Source of the DNA: Spirochaetales bacterium Spiro_09
GTDB lineage: Bacteria; Spirochaetota; Spirochaetia; Treponematales; Treponemataceae
DNA: 64,000 bases
Assembly: GCA_001604385.1 (NCBI GenBank)
Contig: LVBK01000020.1
Location: 1-64,000, forward strand
Direction of reading: 5' to 3'
The translations under genes and the position numbers were made by a program. Of the stretch, positions 8,766 through 21,106 are shown piece after piece (position 1 is the stretch's first letter; each line of letters begins with the position of its first letter). The notes under the pieces are model-generated. The model did not search any database, was not told the origin of the DNA, and was given only the letters and a program-made list of their open reading frames with translations.

Positions 8766-10865
8766 TCATTTTTTTCCGAATTCCGCACCCATGAAATACG
8801 CCGAAAAGGCGATGGCGATGTTGCTCAGAATGAACGCCCAGAAGGGAATGGAGGGCCAGGCAACGCCCCCTGTCCGGTCATACACAGTTCCGGTTGTGGC
8901 GGTGTAGCCAGCCCAGTCTTCGTTGTCCTTTTTGACGGTCTTTCTGAAATCGGCAAAGACTTCCGGCGCTATCGTTTCGGCCAGGTTGCGGTATTCCCAT
9001 TGTATCGTGACTGTCCTGTCTTCTTTTTTCGCATCGTACGAAAGAGCATACCAGGGATTATCCGTCCTGTGGGACTCGTTTCCGACCAAAAGCGGCAAGG
9101 GGCTGACGATCGTGACGCGGTGGGTTACCGTATAGGGCTTTTCCAGGAAAAGGGGGAACTTTCGCTCCGCGGGCAGCTTGTCGAAGGCATCCATATAGGT
9201 GCTGAAGGTATGCGGATAGACATAGAGGGTTTCGGTTTTTTCATCGGTGGACTTTTTCCATAGTTGGGGAATGGAATAGGATTCATACACCTCGATAACG
9301 TTTTTCCCGGGATCGTCGGTGGAACGGACATCGGCGGTTTTTTCCGTTCCGGGAAACAGGCGCTGATAAAAATCGAGGTAGAGTTTTTCCATGGTCGCCC
9401 GTCCGGTTGACGCTAGCCTCCAGCGCATGGCATTTGCTTCTTTGCCTGAGTACACGGTTGTCACTTCCAGCGTTCCGCTGCCGTCCGGCCCGGTTCCGGT
9501 AAAGGTTTCGTGCGTTTCGATTGTGCCGGGCAATTCGTCAAGCATGTATTCAAGACTGCCTTCTGCGTAGGGACGTTCGCCCAAGGACAGGACCCAGCCG
9601 TAGTGAGGAACATGGGTAGAGCGGAGATCCCCGCCCTGGTGGGAGATGGTCGGGTCATACCAGTAGCGGTATCCGTTTTGATCCGTCAGTTTGACAATGA
9701 CGTGATTGAAGGCATAGGGGGAGGGTAGCCGGTCATTGATGCTGCGGCCCGCATCCGAGTGGACAAGCGTGGCAACGACATCCCAGCCGTCAAGACGGGC
9801 AAGTTCGCTGAACAGCAGGGCCTTGTCCTTGCAGTCACCGAAACGGCTTGCCGCAACTTCCAGGGGTTTGCGGGGTTTGTGGGAGTTAATGCCGATCTCG
9901 ATACCGAAGTACCGGATATCGTTCTGCACAAACCGGAGCAGGTCAATCAGTCTCTCTTCCCTTCCTTGGCCCGTTCCCCGGTCTTTTGCGATCCGTTCCG
10001 ATAATTCTGCCAAACCGGTGGCCGCATCGCCAGAAGCGGACAGGGCAAAGAGTTTTGTACCCCATTCACGAACCTCTTCCCAACTTTGCCATTGTGAATA
10101 CTCGATCCAGGGATATGTCCAGAACCAGGGGGGCGTTCGCTCTTCCGCCTTTACTTCCGGCGAGTTCTTTTCATGCCACACATACTCGTGCAAGCCGTCC
10201 GCGGTGGTTACCTTTGACACCGGTAATTCCCTGACGTGCTGCTTTATTGAAAGCGGCCTTCGCGGATCGACAAGCAGGCGGAAATGCACGGTGTCCATCG
10301 GATAATTGTAGCCATGATGAAAACTGCCCGCCGTCATGTCGCCGAATATCGGATTCGTTCCCGTGATGCTGAATTCGTACTCCACCACGTCGTTCACCCT
10401 GATGTCCTCCAAAACCAGCAGCATGGTTCTGGTTTCTTTGTATTGCAGAATGTCGAGCGACTCCTCTTTCTGGATTTCCTTCCATCGAATGCGGTTTGTC
10501 CACTCGTGCTTCGTCCCGTTGCGCCAGACGGAGAGGGAATGCAACGTGAATTGTTCGTACGAGGGTTCCCATGAAAGTTCAATCTGTGAGGCGTCGGTGA
10601 GGCCCGCATTATTGATAACCCGAAACGCGTAGTGGCGGTAATCCTGCTTTTGTTCGACATGAATTTGCTGGTCCACCAGCAGGTAATAATATCCGTAATC
10701 AACCAGTGAGGGGTCTATGGTTGCCGCAGGATCGCAGGTAACCGGCTGTGTCCACTGTGGCCGCGCGCTGACCGGGATGCTGCCGTTGTCCAGGGCCTTC
10801 AGGGAGGGAAGGAAGACCGTAGCCAGAATAAGGAACGCAATCAAAGAAAAGAATCTGGGGTGCAT
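8766..10865 (-). CDS. Exported DUF3857 / transglutaminase-like protein
   Basis: 699 residues from the ATG at 10,865. Residues 1-24 form a signal peptide. A DUF3857 beta domain follows ([13 protein letters not shown] region), then a transglutaminase-like core with the catalytic Cys in [11 protein letters not shown] and a His in FNHVIV. A C-terminal membrane helix ([19 protein letters not shown]) is near the end. Such proteins are anchored with the catalytic part outside the cytoplasm; substrates are unknown. A promoter ends 6 nt before this ATG, so the start is probably leaderless. An in-frame TTG at 10,943 has no ribosome site. Confidence 0.78.
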
Positions 10866-15686: not shown

Positions 15687-16808
15687 TCAGATGATACCCG
15701 AAAAGGCGATAGTCCGGGGCTTGACCATGACGTCGGGATTCCAGCCTTCGTGCGTATTGGTAAAGCTTGCGAAGATGAATTGTTCCCGGGGGTCAATGAA
15801 CAGCGAACACCAGCCCCAACCCTCATGATTATAGCATTCCACCGATTCCGTCGGTCCGTCGGAATAGAATTCCCACCCAAGTCCCTGACGGAACGACTTG
15901 CAGTTTTTTCCCCAGTGGAAGGAGGGTACATTCTCCAGCTGGTTACGGGTCATGGCCTCTACGGTCTTTCGCCCCAACAGGCGCACTCCGTCAAGGGTTC
16001 CGCCGTTCAGGTAGCACTGGGCAAAGCGGAACATGTCGGGCAGGGACGAATAGGCGCCGAATCCGCCCAGGGCAAAGTGGCGTTCATCCCGGGGCCCGTT
16101 GATAAAGGAGTCCGTCTCCCAGCTTTCGGTCGTCGTTATGTCCGGGATCAGGCTTTTGTCCGGGTTGAAGAAGCTGCGCGTCATGCCGAGCGGCTTGAAC
16201 ACTTCTTTCTCGATATAGTCTTCCACCTTCATGCCGGTAACGCGCGCAATCATTTCTCCGAGGACGGAAAAGCCCAGCGTGCAGTAGTTCCACTGTTCTC
16301 CCGGCTTTGCCTGTATAGGCCCGGAAAGAAGCCGCTTGATCCAGTCGGGTTTGTTAATTATTTCGAAGTAGTCGATGGGGTATGGTTCGCACCAGTAGCC
16401 GTCGTCCGCCCAGAGACCCGAGGTATGGGTCAATAAGTGCCAGAGGTTGATGTTCCCGTGCATGGGAGTATCGAATTCGCTCAGAATCGATTTGACTGGC
16501 TGCTCGAGCCAGAGTTTGCCGTCCTCGACCAGTTTCATGGCAGCGGTCGCGGTAAAAACCTTTGTTATCGAAGCCATGTGTTTGATGGCGTCTGGTTGTA
16601 TGTCGGCCGAATTTTCGGTGTGATGTTGCTTGCCGGCAACGCGGTGGCAAAAGGTTTTTCCGTTTCGTGCCATCAGAAAGCCCGCTGCGCGAATCTTCCC
16701 CGAGTCGATGAGGGAACCGTAGTAGTCGCTCAAGAGTTCGACGCGGCTTGCCGAGTAACCTGCCTTGGCTGCGCTTGTCTGTGCCTTCGCTTCTGTCCAT
16801 TTTGCCAT
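15687..16808 (-). CDS. Serine hydrolase of the class C beta-lactamase / S12 family
   Basis: 373 residues, no signal peptide. The SxxK motif is SITK in HMASITKVFTATA, where Ser is the nucleophile. The second motif is YCT in WNYCTLGF in place of the usual YxN. LLTHTSGLW is the family's conserved HTSGL block, and a third-motif HEGWG lies near the C-terminus. Such enzymes are esterases or D-amino-acid peptidases more often than true beta-lactamases. AAAGGAG is well placed before the ATG. It precedes the exporter genes by only 11 nt and probably shares their transcript. Confidence 0.83.
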   Translation of the reverse strand: MAKWTEAKAQTSAAKAGYSASRVELLSDYYGSLIDSGKIRAAGFLMARNGKTFCHRVAGKQHHTENSADIQPDAIKHMASITKVFTATAAMKLVEDGKLWLEQPVKSILSEFDTPMHGNINLWHLLTHTSGLWADDGYWCEPYPIDYFEIINKPDWIKRLLSGPIQAKPGEQWNYCTLGFSVLGEMIARVTGMKVEDYIEKEVFKPLGMTRSFFNPDKSLIPDITTTESWETDSFINGPRDERHFALGGFGAYSSLPDMFRFAQCYLNGGTLDGVRLLGRKTVEAMTRNQLENVPSFHWGKNCKSFRQGLGWEFYSDGPTESVECYNHEGWGWCSLFIDPREQFIFASFTNTHEGWNPDVMVKPRTIAFSGII

Positions 16809-16898
16809 AAGGTGCTCCTTTTTTCATATACTACTACTGCGCCGTACTTTCGTACAGCCCCTTTTTTTTGTCACCCGGAAACGGATTATGGTGTTATC

Positions 16899-17438
16899 AT
16901 GAACGCGGGGGCAGGTATGAGAATCGAATTGGTCAAAGGGGACATTACCGCTGTTGCGGTTGACGTTATCGTTAACGCGGCGAATTCTTCGTTGTCGGGG
17001 GGCGGTGGCGTTGACGGAGCCATTCACCGTGCCTCCGGTGAGAGTCTGGCGGCCGAATGTCGTGCGGTGATCGCGGAGCGGGGTCCGCTTGTGCCGGGCC
17101 AGATCGTCCGTACCGGCGCCGGAGCCCTCCCTGCCCGCGCGGTCTTTCACGCCCTCGGACCCGTGTGGCGCGGGGGCCGGAACGGTGAGCGTGAACATCT
17201 TTCCGCCTGCTACGAGAACGCCCTTTCCCTTGCCCGTGAGCTGGGCTTTGCCTCCATTGCCTTCCCCGCCATCAGTACCGGCGCGTATCTTTTCCCCAAG
17301 AACGAGGCTGTTGCCCTGGTGCGCAGGGTTATCGACCGGCATCTTGCCGCGCTCTCTCCCCTTCACGTCATCTTCGTCAACCCCGACCCCGAGAATCATC
17401 GTCTCTATCAAGCCGCCTTCGCGGGCATGACGGGATGA
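16899..17438 (+). CDS. Macrodomain protein (ADP-ribose-binding/hydrolase)
   Basis: 179 residues. VDVIVNAANSSLSGGGGVDGAIHRASG is the macrodomain loop 1 with the catalytic-site Asn and Gly-rich stretch, and ISTGAYLFPKNEA is loop 2. The MacroD-type family (YmdB) removes ADP-ribose from proteins or hydrolyses O-acetyl-ADP-ribose. Start choice is open. ATG 16,899 has a -10-like TATGGT 6 nt upstream. ATG 16,917 has GGGGGCAGG just before it and begins at the core fold (MRIELVKGDIT). Convergent with the mercury methylation operon, 19 nt away. Confidence 0.88.
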   Translation: MNAGAGMRIELVKGDITAVAVDVIVNAANSSLSGGGGVDGAIHRASGESLAAECRAVIAERGPLVPGQIVRTGAGALPARAVFHALGPVWRGGRNGEREHLSACYENALSLARELGFASIAFPAISTGAYLFPKNEAVALVRRVIDRHLAALSPLHVIFVNPDPENHRLYQAAFAGMTG

Positions 17439-17457
17439 TGTTGTTCGCCGGTGAAAA

Positions 17458-17898
17458 CTACACCGCGAGGATTCGTTCCAGGAGCATGACCGAATCACGG
17501 ATATAGGTTTCACAGCGTGGTTTCATGTCTTCTTCCCGGTACCGGTTTTGGCCCGCTTCGGTCAGGAGATTCACTCCGTCAAGCAGGATCCTGCATTCGC
17601 TTGTTCCATGACGGCTTTCAAATTCCGCAAAAAAGTCGCGCGTCAGGGCATAGGCTTCTTCCTGGTCTGCCTTCGTTCCTCCCTTGCCGCGACCCCTCAA
17701 TTGCGAGATGACCATCAGGGCTCCCGAAACTGCACCGCAACATAATTGTCTGCGGCCGCCGCCTGCCCCGAAGGCGCAGGCAATGCGGCAGCTGTCGTCC
17801 TCGCTCATGCCGGTGTCGGCGCTGAAGGCCGTCAGTACTGCCTGCGCGCAGTTGTAGGAATCGGCGAACATGCCAACCGCTTTTTCCGTTCTGTTCAT
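17458..17898 (-). CDS. C_GCAxxG_C_C family redox protein in the hgcAB operon
   Basis: 146 residues from the ATG at 17,898, with AAGGAGT upstream. The family's cysteines are visible: NCAQAVLTAF near residue 17, DDSCRIACAFGAGGG, QLCCGAVSGALMV, and a later ECRILL. This family (C_GCAxxG_C_C) is annotated as redox-active; some members are thought to carry a metal or cluster, but the function is unproven. It is the last gene of the marR-hgcA-hgcB run and starts 20 nt after hgcB. A role in electron supply to HgcB or HgcA is a natural guess from context only. Confidence 0.8.
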   Translation of the reverse strand: MNRTEKAVGMFADSYNCAQAVLTAFSADTGMSEDDSCRIACAFGAGGGRRQLCCGAVSGALMVISQLRGRGKGGTKADQEEAYALTRDFFAEFESRHGTSECRILLDGVNLLTEAGQNRYREEDMKPRCETYIRDSVMLLERILAV

Positions 17899-17918
17899 AT
17901 TGGTACTCCTTTTTATCA

Positions 17919-18215
17919 TCAACAGCAGGACGTGGAGTTGTCGCAGGAACATTCTCCCGTTCTGTTGAGCATTCCGTTTATTACCGCGGCCGCGCAGCCG
18001 ACTCCCGAGTTGACCCTGATAGCACGGACGGGGCAGTTTTTCGCGCAGGCTCCGCACTCCATGCAATAGTCCCGTTGGCGAATGCTCACCGCGCCGTTTC
18101 CTTCCGGAAGAAGAAAGACCGCATGGGGACACACGTCAATACAGCGGCCGCACCGAACGCAGATGGATTCATCGACCTGCAGGCTTCGCCCGTTTCCCTG
18201 ATAGTGTTGTTTCAT
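17919..18215 (-). CDS. hgcB: HgcB, ferredoxin partner of mercury methylation
   Basis: 98 residues with two 4Fe-4S motifs of CX2CX2CX3CP type (Cys19/22/25/29 and Cys51/54/57/61). Two features separate HgcB from ordinary ferredoxins: an extra conserved Cys74 in SGVGCAAAVING and a C-terminal vicinal cysteine pair (Cys97-Cys98, SCC end). HgcB reduces the corrinoid of HgcA and is thought to bind mercury via these extra cysteines. AAGGAGG precedes the ATG. It lies 10 nt downstream of hgcA, the invariant order for this pair. All diagnostic residues are present, so the gene looks functional. Confidence 0.93.
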   Translation of the reverse strand: MKQHYQGNGRSLQVDESICVRCGRCIDVCPHAVFLLPEGNGAVSIRQRDYCMECGACAKNCPVRAIRVNSGVGCAAAVINGMLNRTGECSCDNSTSCC

Positions 18216-18225
18216 GGGAGCCTCC

Positions 18226-19272
18226 TTATCGATTCAATACGCGTACAAGATGGATGATTGTCGTCGCAATGCCCGTTGCAAGAGTAAGAGCCAGGAAGGG
18301 AAGACTGCGTTTGACCTCCTGTATGACGCCGTTTTGATTGGTGTATGTGGTAGACCCGGTAAAATTCATGGCGATATAGGATGATACCGCCCCGAATATC
18401 GCAATTGACGAAATGAGTGAAAGATACCCTAACCCGGCGGGCTTGCCGGCCACCAGAAGAACACATACCGTCCACAGAATATGGAGAACCATGCCCTTTA
18501 CGGAAAAATACTTTCCGGGAAGAAAGGGTAGAGCCAGGGGGAACAGGATGAGCGACACGAGAAGCGAGGCTTCGTTATAGATGATAAGAGCGATAAAGCG
18601 GCCCGGAAACTGTCCGTCTGCAGGAAGAGAAACAGGCAGGGCCAGAAGAAGAGCCGCAAGATGCGCGATACCGCTGTGCGCGAATTCTACCGGAACAAGA
18701 ACGGCTCGTTCCGGCGCGGTGAAATGGATATCCCGCATCGAGGCATCCTTTACCATACCGGAGGACAGGAAACGCGGAATGTCACGGGCATATACCGGAC
18801 CGAAAACAACGCGCCGGCCGGTCAGCCGCCCAAGTTCGTTTCCGTCAATGCCGCTTGCTGAAAGCTGGGGCAACACAAGTATTCCCTCCGGGGAAACGTC
18901 CGCGACACGGAAAGTTGACAGTGCCTTTGCGACGACACTGGCGTTCATTCTTCCTTTTCCTGCCGCGCACCAGACGTTCACGCCGCCAGTGTCAACAATC
19001 AGCAGCCATGCGTGTACGCCGTTCAGTTCCCTTCGAACCATGTTGACTGTCAGGATATAATTGGCAGTAACCAGTACCGGGGAGGTATTGTCCGGCTTTC
19101 CGACAAAGTACAGCCCCGGTGGAAAAACGGCCCGGTTCCGCCCGACACCGCAGCGGATTGCGGCATTTTGCAGTCGGTCACGCCACGTGAGCCGGGTTGT
19201 CAGGCCAAGTGCCGCGATTATTCTATGCGGCGACAGAATCGCCGTTTGTGTTGTCGTTACGGGTTGCAACAT
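18226..19272 (-). CDS. hgcA: HgcA, corrinoid protein for mercury methylation
   Basis: 348 residues. The corrinoid-binding domain spans about residues 45-195. Its cap helix holds the diagnostic motif N(V/I)WCA(A/G)GK, seen here as NVWCAAGK with Cys102 as the axial cobalt ligand. The C-terminal part has about five membrane helices (roughly 200-343) and the NFTGSTTYTN loop found in HgcA. It transfers a methyl group to Hg(II) to give methylmercury; HgcB re-reduces the cobalt. The related acetyl-CoA pathway protein CFeSP lacks the membrane part and the WCA motif. The start overlaps marR by 16 nt and has GAGGGG 8 nt upstream. Confidence 0.95.
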   Translation of the reverse strand: MLQPVTTTQTAILSPHRIIAALGLTTRLTWRDRLQNAAIRCGVGRNRAVFPPGLYFVGKPDNTSPVLVTANYILTVNMVRRELNGVHAWLLIVDTGGVNVWCAAGKGRMNASVVAKALSTFRVADVSPEGILVLPQLSASGIDGNELGRLTGRRVVFGPVYARDIPRFLSSGMVKDASMRDIHFTAPERAVLVPVEFAHSGIAHLAALLLALPVSLPADGQFPGRFIALIIYNEASLLVSLILFPLALPFLPGKYFSVKGMVLHILWTVCVLLVAGKPAGLGYLSLISSIAIFGAVSSYIAMNFTGSTTYTNQNGVIQEVKRSLPFLALTLATGIATTIIHLVRVLNR

Positions 19273-19721
19273 ATTGATTGCCCCTCACTGCGGTTCGTTT
19301 CCATGGCGTGCGCCAGTATTTCAACGGCCTCCATGACGACCGCAGTTTTCTCTTCCGGAATATGCGCAAAGAGTGCCCTGTATTGAGCGTTGCACAGCGA
19401 GTTGATGGTGTCGCATTTTTCCTGCCCTTTGGATGTCAGGCTTAGCGTGATTTTCCGTCTGTTCCGCTCATCCTGCACCCGTTCGGTAAAGCCCTCCCTG
19501 ACAAGACTATCTGCGGTCCTGCTCAAGGTGCTTTTATCCAGGGCAAGAGCGTCGGCCAGATCCTGCAGACTGGAAGGCCCGCGAATTTCGATTTCAAGCA
19601 GCAGATGGCACTGGGCAACCGTAACCCCGCAACAGGCGGTTTCTTCGGAAAGAAGAAGTCCCGTTTCCCGCTCAAGCATCCGCATGTATTTCCTGAAAAG
19701 TGGCAAATCAAGTTTTCTCAT
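19257..19721 (-). CDS. MarR-family regulator of the hgcAB operon, Cys-rich
   Basis: 154 residues. The winged helix is at about 35-110, with recognition helix SLQDLADALALDKSTLSRTADSL and wing ERVQDERNRRKITLSLT. An unusual run of cysteines sits before the domain (ETACCGVTVAQC), with further Cys in EKCDTINSLC and SICCNP. These could sense a thiophilic metal or redox state; that is inferred. The ATG at 19,721 lies next to a perfect 25-bp palindrome, the probable operator. It is the first gene of the operon and overlaps hgcA. Longer in-frame starts up to 20,006 run through the repeat region and are unlikely. Confidence 0.85.
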   Translation of the reverse strand: MRKLDLPLFRKYMRMLERETGLLLSEETACCGVTVAQCHLLLEIEIRGPSSLQDLADALALDKSTLSRTADSLVREGFTERVQDERNRRKITLSLTSKGQEKCDTINSLCNAQYRALFAHIPEEKTAVVMEAVEILAHAMETNRSEGQSICCNP

Positions 19722-19722
19722 A

Positions 19723-19747
19723 CAACAGTTGTAATATACAACTGTTG
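19723..19747 (-). promoter_or_regulatory. Palindromic operator of the marR-hgcAB operon
   Basis: CAACAGTTGTA (19,723-19,733) and TACAACTGTTG (19,737-19,747) are perfect 11-bp arms around a 3-nt centre. The site ends 1 nt before the marR ATG and overlaps any promoter there. MarR proteins bind palindromes of this size, so autoregulation together with hgcAB is likely. Confidence 0.78.
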
Positions 19748-19829
19748 CTATTATCAACCTGTTTTTTATCTGATGAGGCTCTTTCAAAAGTAATCGACTT
19801 TTGAAATTGGCTCTGATGATTCCTTTACG

Positions 19830-19933
19830 CGAAGGCGAGCGCGCCCGGCATTTTTCGTGAATGAGGGGGCTCCGAACGGCCCGCCGCGCGCTCTTGCCGC
19901 GCGGCTTCGCCTTATGTGGCCCGCTCTGCCTCA
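19830..19933 (-). repeat. Dispersed intergenic repeat, copy B
   Basis: On the minus strand it begins with TGAGGCAGA (19,933-19,925), whose TGA is the stop codon of the MFS gene. CGGAGCCCCC follows 59 nt later (19,874-19,865), then a tail close to that of copy A (TC-CGAAA-ATxC-GGCGCGC-CTCG-TTCGCG). It separates the MFS gene from the hgc operon. Confidence 0.7.
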
Positions 19934-21106
19934 GTCTTGTTCCCTTCCGCCCGCTGAAAGGAGCAGCGCGCATATCAGGATGACAAGAGCCCCGCTTGCC
20001 GTCCATACCGTTTTCCAGTCGCGAAGTTCGGCAAGGTAGCCGGTTCCCAATATGAGCAGGATGGCTACCAGATTGTCAAGGAGACTTCGGACCGACATGA
20101 CGGTCGCGCGCCGCGAGCCGGGAACCAGGTCCTGCATGCGCGCTTCAACCTGAACCGACAGCAGGGCGTAGAGCGCGTAGTAGAGGCCGTACAAGGGCAG
20201 CACGATGAGGCTGCCGGTTATGCCGATCAGGGGAAGCACCAGGGCGCCCAGTGCCGCGATTGCCAGGATGCGGGGGATGCTGGAAAGAAGGCGGTCCGCC
20301 CGGTGCGCCAGGAGGGCTCCGGCCGATTCGCAGGCATAGCGGATGGCGAGCCACAGACCCAGATGAACGGGAAGCATGCCGAGGGAGGTCAGAAAGACCG
20401 GGTCCCATTCCTCAAGCACTCCGGGTATCAAAAGTACCGCGCTCGCGAGGATGGTAAGTGTCAGCAAGGAGCGTGAGGCCCGTATGTCCGCGAAGGCGTT
20501 TCGGACCATCGAGGGAAAATTGAGGCGCGACTCTTCGTCCTCGTCCGGTTCGCCGGTTTTCGGGGGCCTGTCGAAGAAGAGGACTGCCCCGGCCGCAAGG
20601 ACACTGGCCGCCGCCGAAACGCCCAGGACGAAGGTTTCACCAAAGCGGATGCCAAAGCCGCCAAGAATGGACGACAGGCCGATTGCCATCGAAGAGAGGA
20701 ATCTGCCCCTTCCCCGGATCTTCCGGTACTCTGCGCCTCTTCCCGAGTCGGCAAGGCTTTCGTAGAGCCAGGCTTCCTCGGTACCCGAATGCAGGGCCTC
20801 GGACAGTCCCCACAGGATGAAGCCTGCCAGGATGAGGAGAAAGGATTGCGCAGGAATCCACAGGGTGAAGGCAAGGGCTTTTGCGATGGATGCGGCAAAC
20901 AGCACTTTTTTTCTGTCGGTTTTGTCGGAAAGCACCCCCATCGGCAGCTCGAGGGCGACCACGCTCAAGGACCACAGGGCTAAAAGCCATGCAATGGATG
21001 TTTCGTTGAGGCCCCGGTTCTGGAATATAAGGACATACAGGGGGTACGCCAGAATGAGGTCGAAGGAGGCCTTGAAGAGGTAGTAGTGAATATACGCCTT
21101 TTTCAT
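19931..21106 (-). CDS. MFS transporter
   Basis: 391 residues with about 12 membrane helices. The loop between helices 2 and 3 (GVLSDKTDRKKVLF) matches the MFS signature. FWGLSEALHSGTEEAWLYE resembles a branch of drug/unknown-substrate exporters common in Firmicutes and spirochaetes. Substrate unknown. It starts 9 nt after the YkgJ-type gene and is probably co-transcribed with it. Its stop codon is the first base triplet of a dispersed repeat. Confidence 0.82.
   Translation of the reverse strand: MKKAYIHYYLFKASFDLILAYPLYVLIFQNRGLNETSIAWLLALWSLSVVALELPMGVLSDKTDRKKVLFAASIAKALAFTLWIPAQSFLLILAGFILWGLSEALHSGTEEAWLYESLADSGRGAEYRKIRGRGRFLSSMAIGLSSILGGFGIRFGETFVLGVSAAASVLAAGAVLFFDRPPKTGEPDEDEESRLNFPSMVRNAFADIRASRSLLTLTILASAVLLIPGVLEEWDPVFLTSLGMLPVHLGLWLAIRYACESAGALLAHRADRLLSSIPRILAIAALGALVLPLIGITGSLIVLPLYGLYYALYALLSVQVEARMQDLVPGSRRATVMSVRSLLDNLVAILLILGTGYLAELRDWKTVWTASGALVILICALLLSAGGREQD

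What the first reader, a model, noticed from the sequence alone, without database searches (positions are those of the whole stretch)
17458..19747. Mercury methylation genes hgcA-hgcB in a four-gene operon
HgcA has the cap-helix motif NVWCAAGK (Cys102) and a membrane tail. HgcB has two 4Fe-4S motifs, Cys74 and a terminal Cys pair. All residues that define the pair are present, so the host should be able to form methylmercury. The operon also contains a MarR-type regulator and a C_GCAxxG_C_C protein, an arrangement I do not know as standard.
Basis: partly seen in the sequence, partly recalled or inferred. Interest (0 to 1): 0.92.

Follow-up and report, generated by a model that had tools for sequence, protein, structure and literature searches.

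The report
Mercury-methylation operon with arsenic-type regulator
A spirochaete genome carries a real pair of mercury-methylation genes, and the switch gene in front of them belongs to a group of regulators that elsewhere often sits in front of arsenic-methylation genes, which hints at what turns methylmercury production on.

Summary
On the minus strand lie marR (19721-19257), hgcA (19272-18226), hgcB (18215-17919) and a C_GCAxxG_C_C gene, "cga" (17898-17458), closely packed. HgcA and HgcB pass NCBIfam's curated cut-offs (305.1/275 and 103.3/99 bits); HgcA groups with HgcAs, apart from CFeSP and HgcA-like paralogues. The host is a Spirochaetota MAG near Treponema. That it makes methylmercury is not shown: window HgcA differs at 7 of 63 near-invariant columns, the most of 127 HgcAs. 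The new part is around hgcAB. (i) 39 of 42 distinct hgcA-linked MarRs share a Cys-Cys-x6-Cys-His signature. (ii) A palindrome with 11-bp perfect arms abuts the marR start; a similar site lies before 16 of 35 other hgcA-linked marRs. (iii) In Clostridia this MarR type, mostly with a similar site, stands before arsenite methyltransferase, ArsN-like or cga genes. (iv) cga is near hgcAB in 9 of 135 loci, five lineages. Best reading: hgcAB and cga are repressed by a thiol-based MarR of an arsenic-methylation-type circuit. Sensing is inferred. hgcAB itself is known; the arrangement is a new variant.

The parts
19723..19747 (.). palindrome CAACAGTTGTA-TAT-TACAACTGTTG, 11-bp perfect arms; proposed MarR operator, ending 1 nt before the first marR ATG
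   Evidence: core 19727-19743 is the only exact match to AGTTGTANNNTACAACT in the genome; similar sites upstream of relatives' marRs above shuffles
19257..19721 (-). marR: MarR-family regulator, 154 aa, with C30-C31-x6-C38-H39 and C151-C152
   Evidence: PF01047 47.9 bits; C30, C31, C38, H39 invariant in 16 of 16 rows of A3; a later start at Met13 with AGGAAA in front is possible
18226..19272 (-). hgcA: corrinoid mercury-methylation protein, 348 aa, cap-helix NVWCAAGK, Cys102
   Evidence: NF040863 305.1 bits, cut-off 275; tree; 7 unusual residues
17919..18215 (-). hgcB: dicluster ferredoxin, 98 aa, Cys74, Cys97-98
   Evidence: NF040864 103.3 bits, cut-off 99; terminal CC in 107 of 125 and CxC..CC in 74 of 125 HgcB rows
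17458..17898 (-). cga: C_GCAxxG_C_C family protein, 146 aa, Cys 17, 37, 41, 53, 54, 102, 129; all-helical model
   Evidence: PF09719 97.6 bits; 52-62% identical homologues after hgcB in G005, G009 and G011; model pLDDT 89.6

Best explanation
The locus is a true hgcAB pair of a Treponema-like spirochaete, transcribed (inferred) as marR-hgcA-hgcB-cga from a promoter that the MarR itself blocks by binding the palindrome at 19723-19747 (inferred). The MarR belongs to a distinct subfamily with a Cys-Cys-x6-Cys-His site. This site most likely binds a thiophilic metal or metalloid (As(III), a methylated arsenical, or Hg(II)) and releases the DNA (inferred). In Clostridia the same regulator type, mostly with a similar operator, stands before arsenite methyltransferase (arsM), arsN-like or cga genes. 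hgcAB here therefore occupies the place of another SAM-dependent methylation enzyme for a soft element, and cga is a shared thiol-rich accessory of such modules (redox partner or metal-handling protein; inferred). Shown: the genes, motifs, operator conservation, gene order and associations. Not shown: DNA binding, ligand, co-transcription, methylmercury formation, the role of cga.
For: NCBIfam equivalog hits. Tree: window HgcA in a same-genus clade of 5 rows (SH-aLRT 99), apart from six HgcA-like rows (100) and two CFeSP-type rows. MarR profile in 392 Spirochaetota genomes: 25 hits over 85 bits, 23 directly at hgcA. CC-x6-CH in 39 of 42 distinct hgcA-linked MarRs, in none of 37 MarRs scoring under 80 bits. 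Operator within 2 mismatches: 16 of 35 other hgcA-linked upstream regions (0.03 expected in shuffles); within 3: 12 of 14 regions not linked to hgcA (0.26 expected). Clostridia: 14 hits in 12 of 196 genomes, 13 of them not at hgcA; of the neighbours tested, five are ArsM over cut-off (295-309 bits), one ArsN1 over cut-off (232.9), two ArsN1-like below it; cga follows directly in L272 and sits between arsM and an arsN-like gene in L275. cga near hgcAB: 9 of 135 loci in five lineages, against about one PF09719 gene per genome (57 in 59 genomes). MarR and ArsR in front of hgcA nearly exclude each other (40/40/1 of 129). SAM is the methyl donor of HgcAB in vitro (PMC11588087, passages).
Against: No experiment. 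The MarR model is only fair around C30-C31 (pLDDT 67 for residues 21-30) and poor at the C-terminal end (residues 152-154 under 50), so a metal site is not demonstrated. OhrR-like thiol oxidation would use the same cysteines. The operator was defined from the window's own site, and the upstream regions are related by descent; 14 of 35 other hgcA-linked regions, L054 and the two congeners of the other HgcA lineage among them, have no site within three mismatches. In the Clostridial set 9 of 13 MarRs have CC-x6-CH exactly; L266 has CY, L267 an x7 spacing, L268 and L269 depart more. One Clostridial locus (L279) has other genes after the MarR (by eye). cga is absent from most hgcA loci. The orphan marR of G003 lacks the operator, as does the separate G003 cga.
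Confidence: 0.55

Rival explanations
1. The MarR is a thiol redox sensor (OhrR-like) that keeps the oxygen-sensitive corrinoid/Fe-S pair and a redox protein under redox control; arsenic neighbours in Clostridia are secondary.
For: Conserved cysteines fit thiol chemistry; PF09719 is described as a putative redox-active protein; HgcB is a ferredoxin-type protein.
Against: The signature includes His39 and an adjacent Cys pair, more like a ligand set; the recurrent ArsM/ArsN neighbours point to a soft element.
Confidence: 0.3
2. hgcAB is decaying or has drifted in this genus and no longer makes methylmercury efficiently, or acts on another substrate.
For: 7 of 63 near-invariant positions changed, the most of 127; long HgcA branch (0.99); HgcA 46-56% identical (two segments) to syntenic G005 while three flanking proteins are 75-86% (macro gene 60%); G005 hgcA is frameshifted (at a T7 run, possibly an assembly error); G003 (77% complete) keeps marR and an hgc-type cga but shows no hgcA.
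Against: The frame is open over 348 codons, the cap motif and the HgcB cysteines are kept, and the scores are over the curated cut-offs.
Confidence: 0.3
3. cga is a neighbour without a role in mercury methylation.
For: Only 9 of 135 loci have it; the family occurs in 38 of 59 genomes of this group, with a second copy in this genome; in L097 and L074 it is about 1.8 kb from hgcA with genes between.
Against: Five lineages, several arrangements, including insertion between hgcA and hgcB (L154, L155); the same MarR type precedes cga without hgcA (L247/L284, L272).
Confidence: 0.3

Closest known systems
hgcAB of Pseudodesulfovibrio mercurii ND132 under an ArsR-like regulator
   Same: hgcAB with a repressor-type gene upstream and a link to arsenic (as cited in passages of PMC10349881 and, for related strains, PMC7438021; the original paper is not held)
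   Different: The regulator here is MarR-type with a CC-x6-CH signature and cga follows hgcB
'Putative transcriptional regulator' upstream of hgcAB in 112 genomes (McDaniel 2020, PMC7438021, passages seen)
   Same: Regulator immediately upstream of hgcAB in several phyla; an Opitutae member is named there, and an Opitutales locus (L049) has this MarR here
   Different: Family, signature, operator and arsM link are not given in the passages seen; identity of the two sets was not tested
MarR family genes upstream of hgcA in Dethiobacter alkaliphilus and Geobacter daltonii (PMC10349881, passages seen)
   Same: MarR-family gene upstream of hgcA
   Different: No signature, operator or cga in the passages seen
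Clostridial marR-arsM clusters, one with cga and an arsN-like gene
   Same: Same MarR subfamily and a similar operator
   Different: The methylating enzyme is ArsM, not HgcAB
C_GCAxxG_C_C family (PF09719)
   Same: Full-length match to the profile
   Different: A role in hgc operons is not described in the papers found (no held paper has both hgcAB and GCAxxG)

Membership tests
HgcA | score over the curated NCBIfam HgcA cut-off | tested here: met
   305.1 against 275 bits
HgcA | cap-helix motif N(V/I)WCA(A/G)GK with its Cys (motif recalled) | tested here: met
   NVWCAAGK, Cys102
HgcA | C-terminal membrane domain | tested here: met
   about five hydrophobic stretches, by hydropathy only
HgcA | groups with HgcAs, not with CFeSP or HgcA-like paralogues | tested here: met
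   tree of 137 rows; the HgcA-like clade hangs on a 4.95 branch among the HgcAs, so the rooting is not resolved, but the window row is far from it
HgcA | other near-invariant positions kept | tested here: not met
   7 of 63 changed; these do not define the family, so membership stands, but activity is in doubt
HgcA | makes methylmercury with HgcB | not testable with these tools
   needs an assay
HgcB | over NCBIfam cut-off; two CxxCxxCxxxC motifs; C73-equivalent; terminal Cys pair | tested here: met
   103.3 against 99 bits; C74, C97, C98; functional cysteines as in PMC11588087
MarR family | winged-helix MarR domain and fold | tested here: met
   PF01047 47.9 bits; model matches MarR structures, best E 9e-7
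hgcA-linked MarR subfamily (proposed) | CC-x6-CH | tested here: met
   CCGVTVAQCH
ArsR-type hgc regulator | ArsR/SmtB domain | tested here: not met
   the Pfam hits over their cut-offs are MarR, MarR_2, HTH_27 and HTH_IclR
C_GCAxxG_C_C (PF09719) | match to the profile over its gathering score | tested here: met
   97.6 against 27 bits
C_GCAxxG_C_C (PF09719) | redox activity | not testable with these tools
   no solved relative by sequence (best E 0.16, unrelated) or fold (none at E <= 0.001)

The most novel reading that the evidence does not exclude
hgcAB in spirochaetes and several other phyla is one output of a MarR-controlled soft-element methylation regulon shared with arsM/arsN. The regulator senses a thiophilic species through a Cys-Cys-x6-Cys-His site at a conserved operator, and C_GCAxxG_C_C proteins are a common third component. 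Mercury methylation would then be wired as an arsenic/thiophile response, not as part of carbon metabolism.
Probability: 0.4. Interest if true: 0.75.

Novelty: new variant of a known kind. Interest (0 to 1): 0.55.

Why it matters
Why microbes keep hgcAB and what switches it on is a long-standing question in mercury biogeochemistry. A regulator with a defined signature and operator, shared with arsenic-methylation genes, gives a direct test of which chemical turns on methylmercury genes outside the sulfate reducers. A recurrent third gene (cga) offers a candidate partner of HgcAB.

Tried and rejected
HgcA as a CFeSP paralogue: rejected; the Pfam CdhD and PDB hits to CFeSP reflect the shared corrinoid domain.

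Four-gene operon as unique to this strain: rejected; marR-hgcA-hgcB-cga recurs in G005 and G011, and hgcA-hgcB-cga in G009, whose contig ends inside hgcA.

Other operator sites in the genome: within two mismatches there are three sites in all (the exact one, C58, C70), against seven for the reversed-pattern control, so no wider regulon is claimed. Operator near the separate cga of G003: none.

cga by structure: no PDB match at E <= 0.001. Mobile origin via plasmids: no match in the plasmid collection. ArsM in the own genome: none at E <= 0.001, though the assembly is 88% complete. Consensus promoter on the minus strand at 17300-20000: none by the simple scan.

The basal place of L154/L155 in the HgcA tree is not trusted, because long branches (L165, CFeSP rows) meet there. 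A guessed DOI led to an unrelated paper, and the ND132 regulator paper is not held.
Full report
What is there. On the minus strand, 19721-17458 holds four closely packed genes: marR (154 aa), hgcA (348 aa), hgcB (98 aa) and a C_GCAxxG_C_C gene, here cga (146 aa). marR and hgcA overlap by 16 bp; the next gaps are 10 and 20 bp, with AAGGAG before hgcB and cga. HgcA and HgcB pass NCBIfam's curated equivalog cut-offs (305.1/275 and 103.3/99 bits); the 'HgcAB-like fusion' model scores 180.3 (cut-off 285). MarR and cga match PF01047 and PF09719. The genome (2.72 Mb, 83 contigs, 88% complete) shows one hgcA and two PF09719 genes. Contigs of two same-genus genomes equal in length records titled Treponema sp. 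MAG11 and Spirochaetes bacterium ADurb.Bin215.

Placing HgcA. In a 137-row tree (quick search, SH-aLRT only) the window HgcA lies with four same-genus sequences (99) inside a 22-row, mainly spirochaete group (95). Six HgcA-like rows form a clade (100) on a branch of 4.95, drawn among the HgcAs; two CFeSP-type rows are the outgroup; a partial row (L165) sits on a very long branch. The rooting is therefore not resolved. Two HgcA lineages occur in this genus: that of the window, and that of G002/G004. Over the cut-off, 47 of 392 Spirochaetota genomes have hgcA, own included, so hgcAB here is not new; spirochaete-like hgcAB is also in print (PMC7536318, abstract).

Caution on function. Of 63 columns at least 93% conserved in 122 other HgcAs (ten rows, nine of them HgcA-like or CFeSP and one split frame, were dropped), the window HgcA differs at seven: K73I, F76V, D77N, F109M, E113V, G240S, G264H. 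This is the highest count of 127. Phe109 is invariant in all 122. Five of the seven lie within 30 residues of Cys102. In G005, which shares the downstream flank, two ABC-type proteins and a beta-lactamase-like protein are 75-86% identical to the window's (macro gene 60%), but HgcA is 46-56% (two segments), HgcB 52%, cga 60% and MarR 63%. G005 hgcA is frameshifted at a T run, which may be an assembly error. G003 (77% complete) keeps this MarR and a 60%-identical cga at another place but shows no hgcA. hgcAB may be drifting or decaying in this genus.

The regulator. Searching 59 genomes (own and 58 relatives) with a profile of hgcA-linked MarRs gives 14 hits over 180 bits, 13 of them at hgcA (the other is G003), and nothing else over 79 bits. 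In 392 Spirochaetota genomes, 25 hits exceed 85 bits; 23 sit directly at hgcA, the exceptions being G159, where cga follows, and G050. Of 42 distinct hgcA-linked MarRs, 39 carry CC-x6-CH; the exceptions are L075 (distant), L088 (N-masked assembly) and L123. C30, C31, C38 and H39 are invariant in 16 of 16 rows from Spirochaetota, Bacillota, Verrucomicrobiota, Atribacterota and one unplaced bacterium. None of the 37 MarRs under 80 bits in the set shows the motif. The model is a MarR fold with the cysteines just before and at the start of helix 2; no coordinates were available to measure distances.

The operator. CAACAGTTGTA-TAT-TACAACTGTTG (19723-19747) abuts the first marR ATG. Its core is the only exact match to AGTTGTANNNTACAACT in the genome. 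In 150-bp regions upstream of MarRs, 4 of 4 of the window's lineage, 16 of 35 other hgcA-linked and 4 of 14 not hgcA-linked regions match within two mismatches; means over 100 sets of shuffles are 0.01, 0.03 and 0.01. Within three mismatches the counts are 4, 21 and 12, against 0.08, 0.36 and 0.26. So 14 of the 35 have no site within three mismatches, among them L054 and the two congeners of the other lineage (L023, L024). The motif came from the window, and the regions are not independent by descent. The group of 14 includes L247.

The arsenic link. In 196 genomes of the class of Acetivibrio mesophilus (G416 included), 12 genomes have 14 such MarRs; only G416's has hgcA within the 1.5-kb flanks. 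Nine of the other 13 have CC-x6-CH; L266 has CC-x6-CY, L267 CC-x7-CH, and L268/L269 depart more. Around these 13: ArsM over cut-off next to five (L273 one of two copies tested, L274, L275, L276, L280: 295-309 bits, cut-off 263); ArsN1 over cut-off in L277 (232.9/170) and below it in L282 (132.2) and L275 (138.5). The second L273 copy, L278 and L283 look alike by eye but were not tested. L281 has a broken methyltransferase reading (one fragment tested, 48.2 bits to a UbiE-type model). L272 has cga directly (PF09719 125.8 bits). L279 has other genes. L275 runs MarR-ArsM-cga-ArsN-like-ArsR. Nine of these 11 genomes have no hgcA over the cut-off; G538 and G584 have it on other contigs. In the MarR tree a mainly Clostridial group (17 rows, four of them hgcA-linked) and the main hgcA-linked group (35 rows, 33 hgcA-linked) are separate, with moderate support (92 and 86).

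cga. Unbiased clustering of genes within 5 kb of hgcA in 135 loci (141 located, six duplicates dropped; six of the 135 are HgcA-like) gives, besides hgcA and hgcB, an ArsR-size gene (48 loci), a MarR group (37, at least two not adjacent), an antisense artefact (36), an Acr3-size transporter (21), an ArsC-size gene (12), a permease-size gene (10) and cga (9). One member each of the ArsR and the transporter group was checked (PF01022, PF01758). The nine with cga: window, L030, L038, L039 (one genus); L053 (another Treponema record); L154 and L155 (another family, cga between hgcA and hgcB); L097 (Bacteroidales: ArsR-ArsC-hgcA-hgcB-Acr3-one gene-cga, by eye); L074 (Clostridiaceae; one gene between hgcB and cga, by eye). 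PF09719 was confirmed for L154, L155, L053, L097 and L074. The HgcA tree needs six changes for the cga label, one of them because the G008 contig ends inside hgcA. With 57 PF09719 genes in 59 genomes, a copy within 2.5 kb of hgcA is expected in about 0.2% of loci (my estimate, 0.2-0.3 loci in 135). Other phyla may carry more copies. The cga model is confident (pLDDT 89.6) and has no PDB match at E <= 0.001.

MarR versus ArsR. Among 129 hgcA loci, 40 have MarR only, 40 ArsR only, 1 both, 41 neither and 7 too little upstream sequence. L033 and L066, counted as neither, do have a MarR (overlapping reading, and downstream). The set is biased toward spirochaetes and toward relatives of the window HgcA.

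Prior work seen. PMC10349881 (passages): MarR genes upstream of hgcA in Dethiobacter and Geobacter daltonii; arsR in many bacteria. PMC7438021 (passages): an unnamed putative regulator upstream of hgcAB in 112 genomes, and arsenic genes nearby. PMC11588087 (passages): SAM is the methyl donor. PMC13188914 and PMC9312934 (passages): selenoprotein forms of HgcA-type, HgcB (the former paper) and C_GCAxxG_C_C proteins. Searches: hgcAB with GCAxxG (0 papers); hgcAB with 'MarR family' (1, seen); arsM with MarR (7; passages of three seen, none linking a MarR to arsM; four not opened); GCAxxG with arsenic (2, passages of both seen, no link made); GCAxxG or redox-active (top 5 listed, one opened). None of what I saw describes this regulator group or cga in hgc operons. 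Subscription papers are mostly not held.

Verdict. Real hgcAB; a new variant of arrangement; the regulator and its arsenic link are the part worth following.

Noticed in passing
L159-L164 (G110, G159, G220, G213, G131, G122): Spirochaetota carry an HgcA-like clade (147-183 bits to NF040863, below its cut-off), five of six with an HgcB-like gene next to it (40-53 bits); a separate paralogue group of unknown role.
   Followed up: partly
L198 6282-6710 and L288 4624-5091 (G003, same genus): A congener in which no hgcA was found keeps this MarR (no operator match) and an hgc-type cga at a different place: looks like a remnant of hgcAB loss.
   Followed up: partly
L034 about 9450-9470 (G005): hgcA of the syntenic congener is frameshifted near a run of seven T; assembly error or decay cannot be told apart.
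   Followed up: no
G416:C1 166008 and 272806: Acetivibrio mesophilus has two hgcA genes over the cut-off; the one fetched (L054) has both a MarR and an ArsR upstream.
   Followed up: no
16755-17438 (+): Macro-domain gene (PF01661, 136.2 bits) convergent with the operon, ending 19 bp from the cga stop; also present beside the operon in G005.
   Followed up: no
15687-16808 (-): Beta-lactamase-family protein (PF00144, 182 bits), conserved beside the operon in G005 (75%).
   Followed up: no
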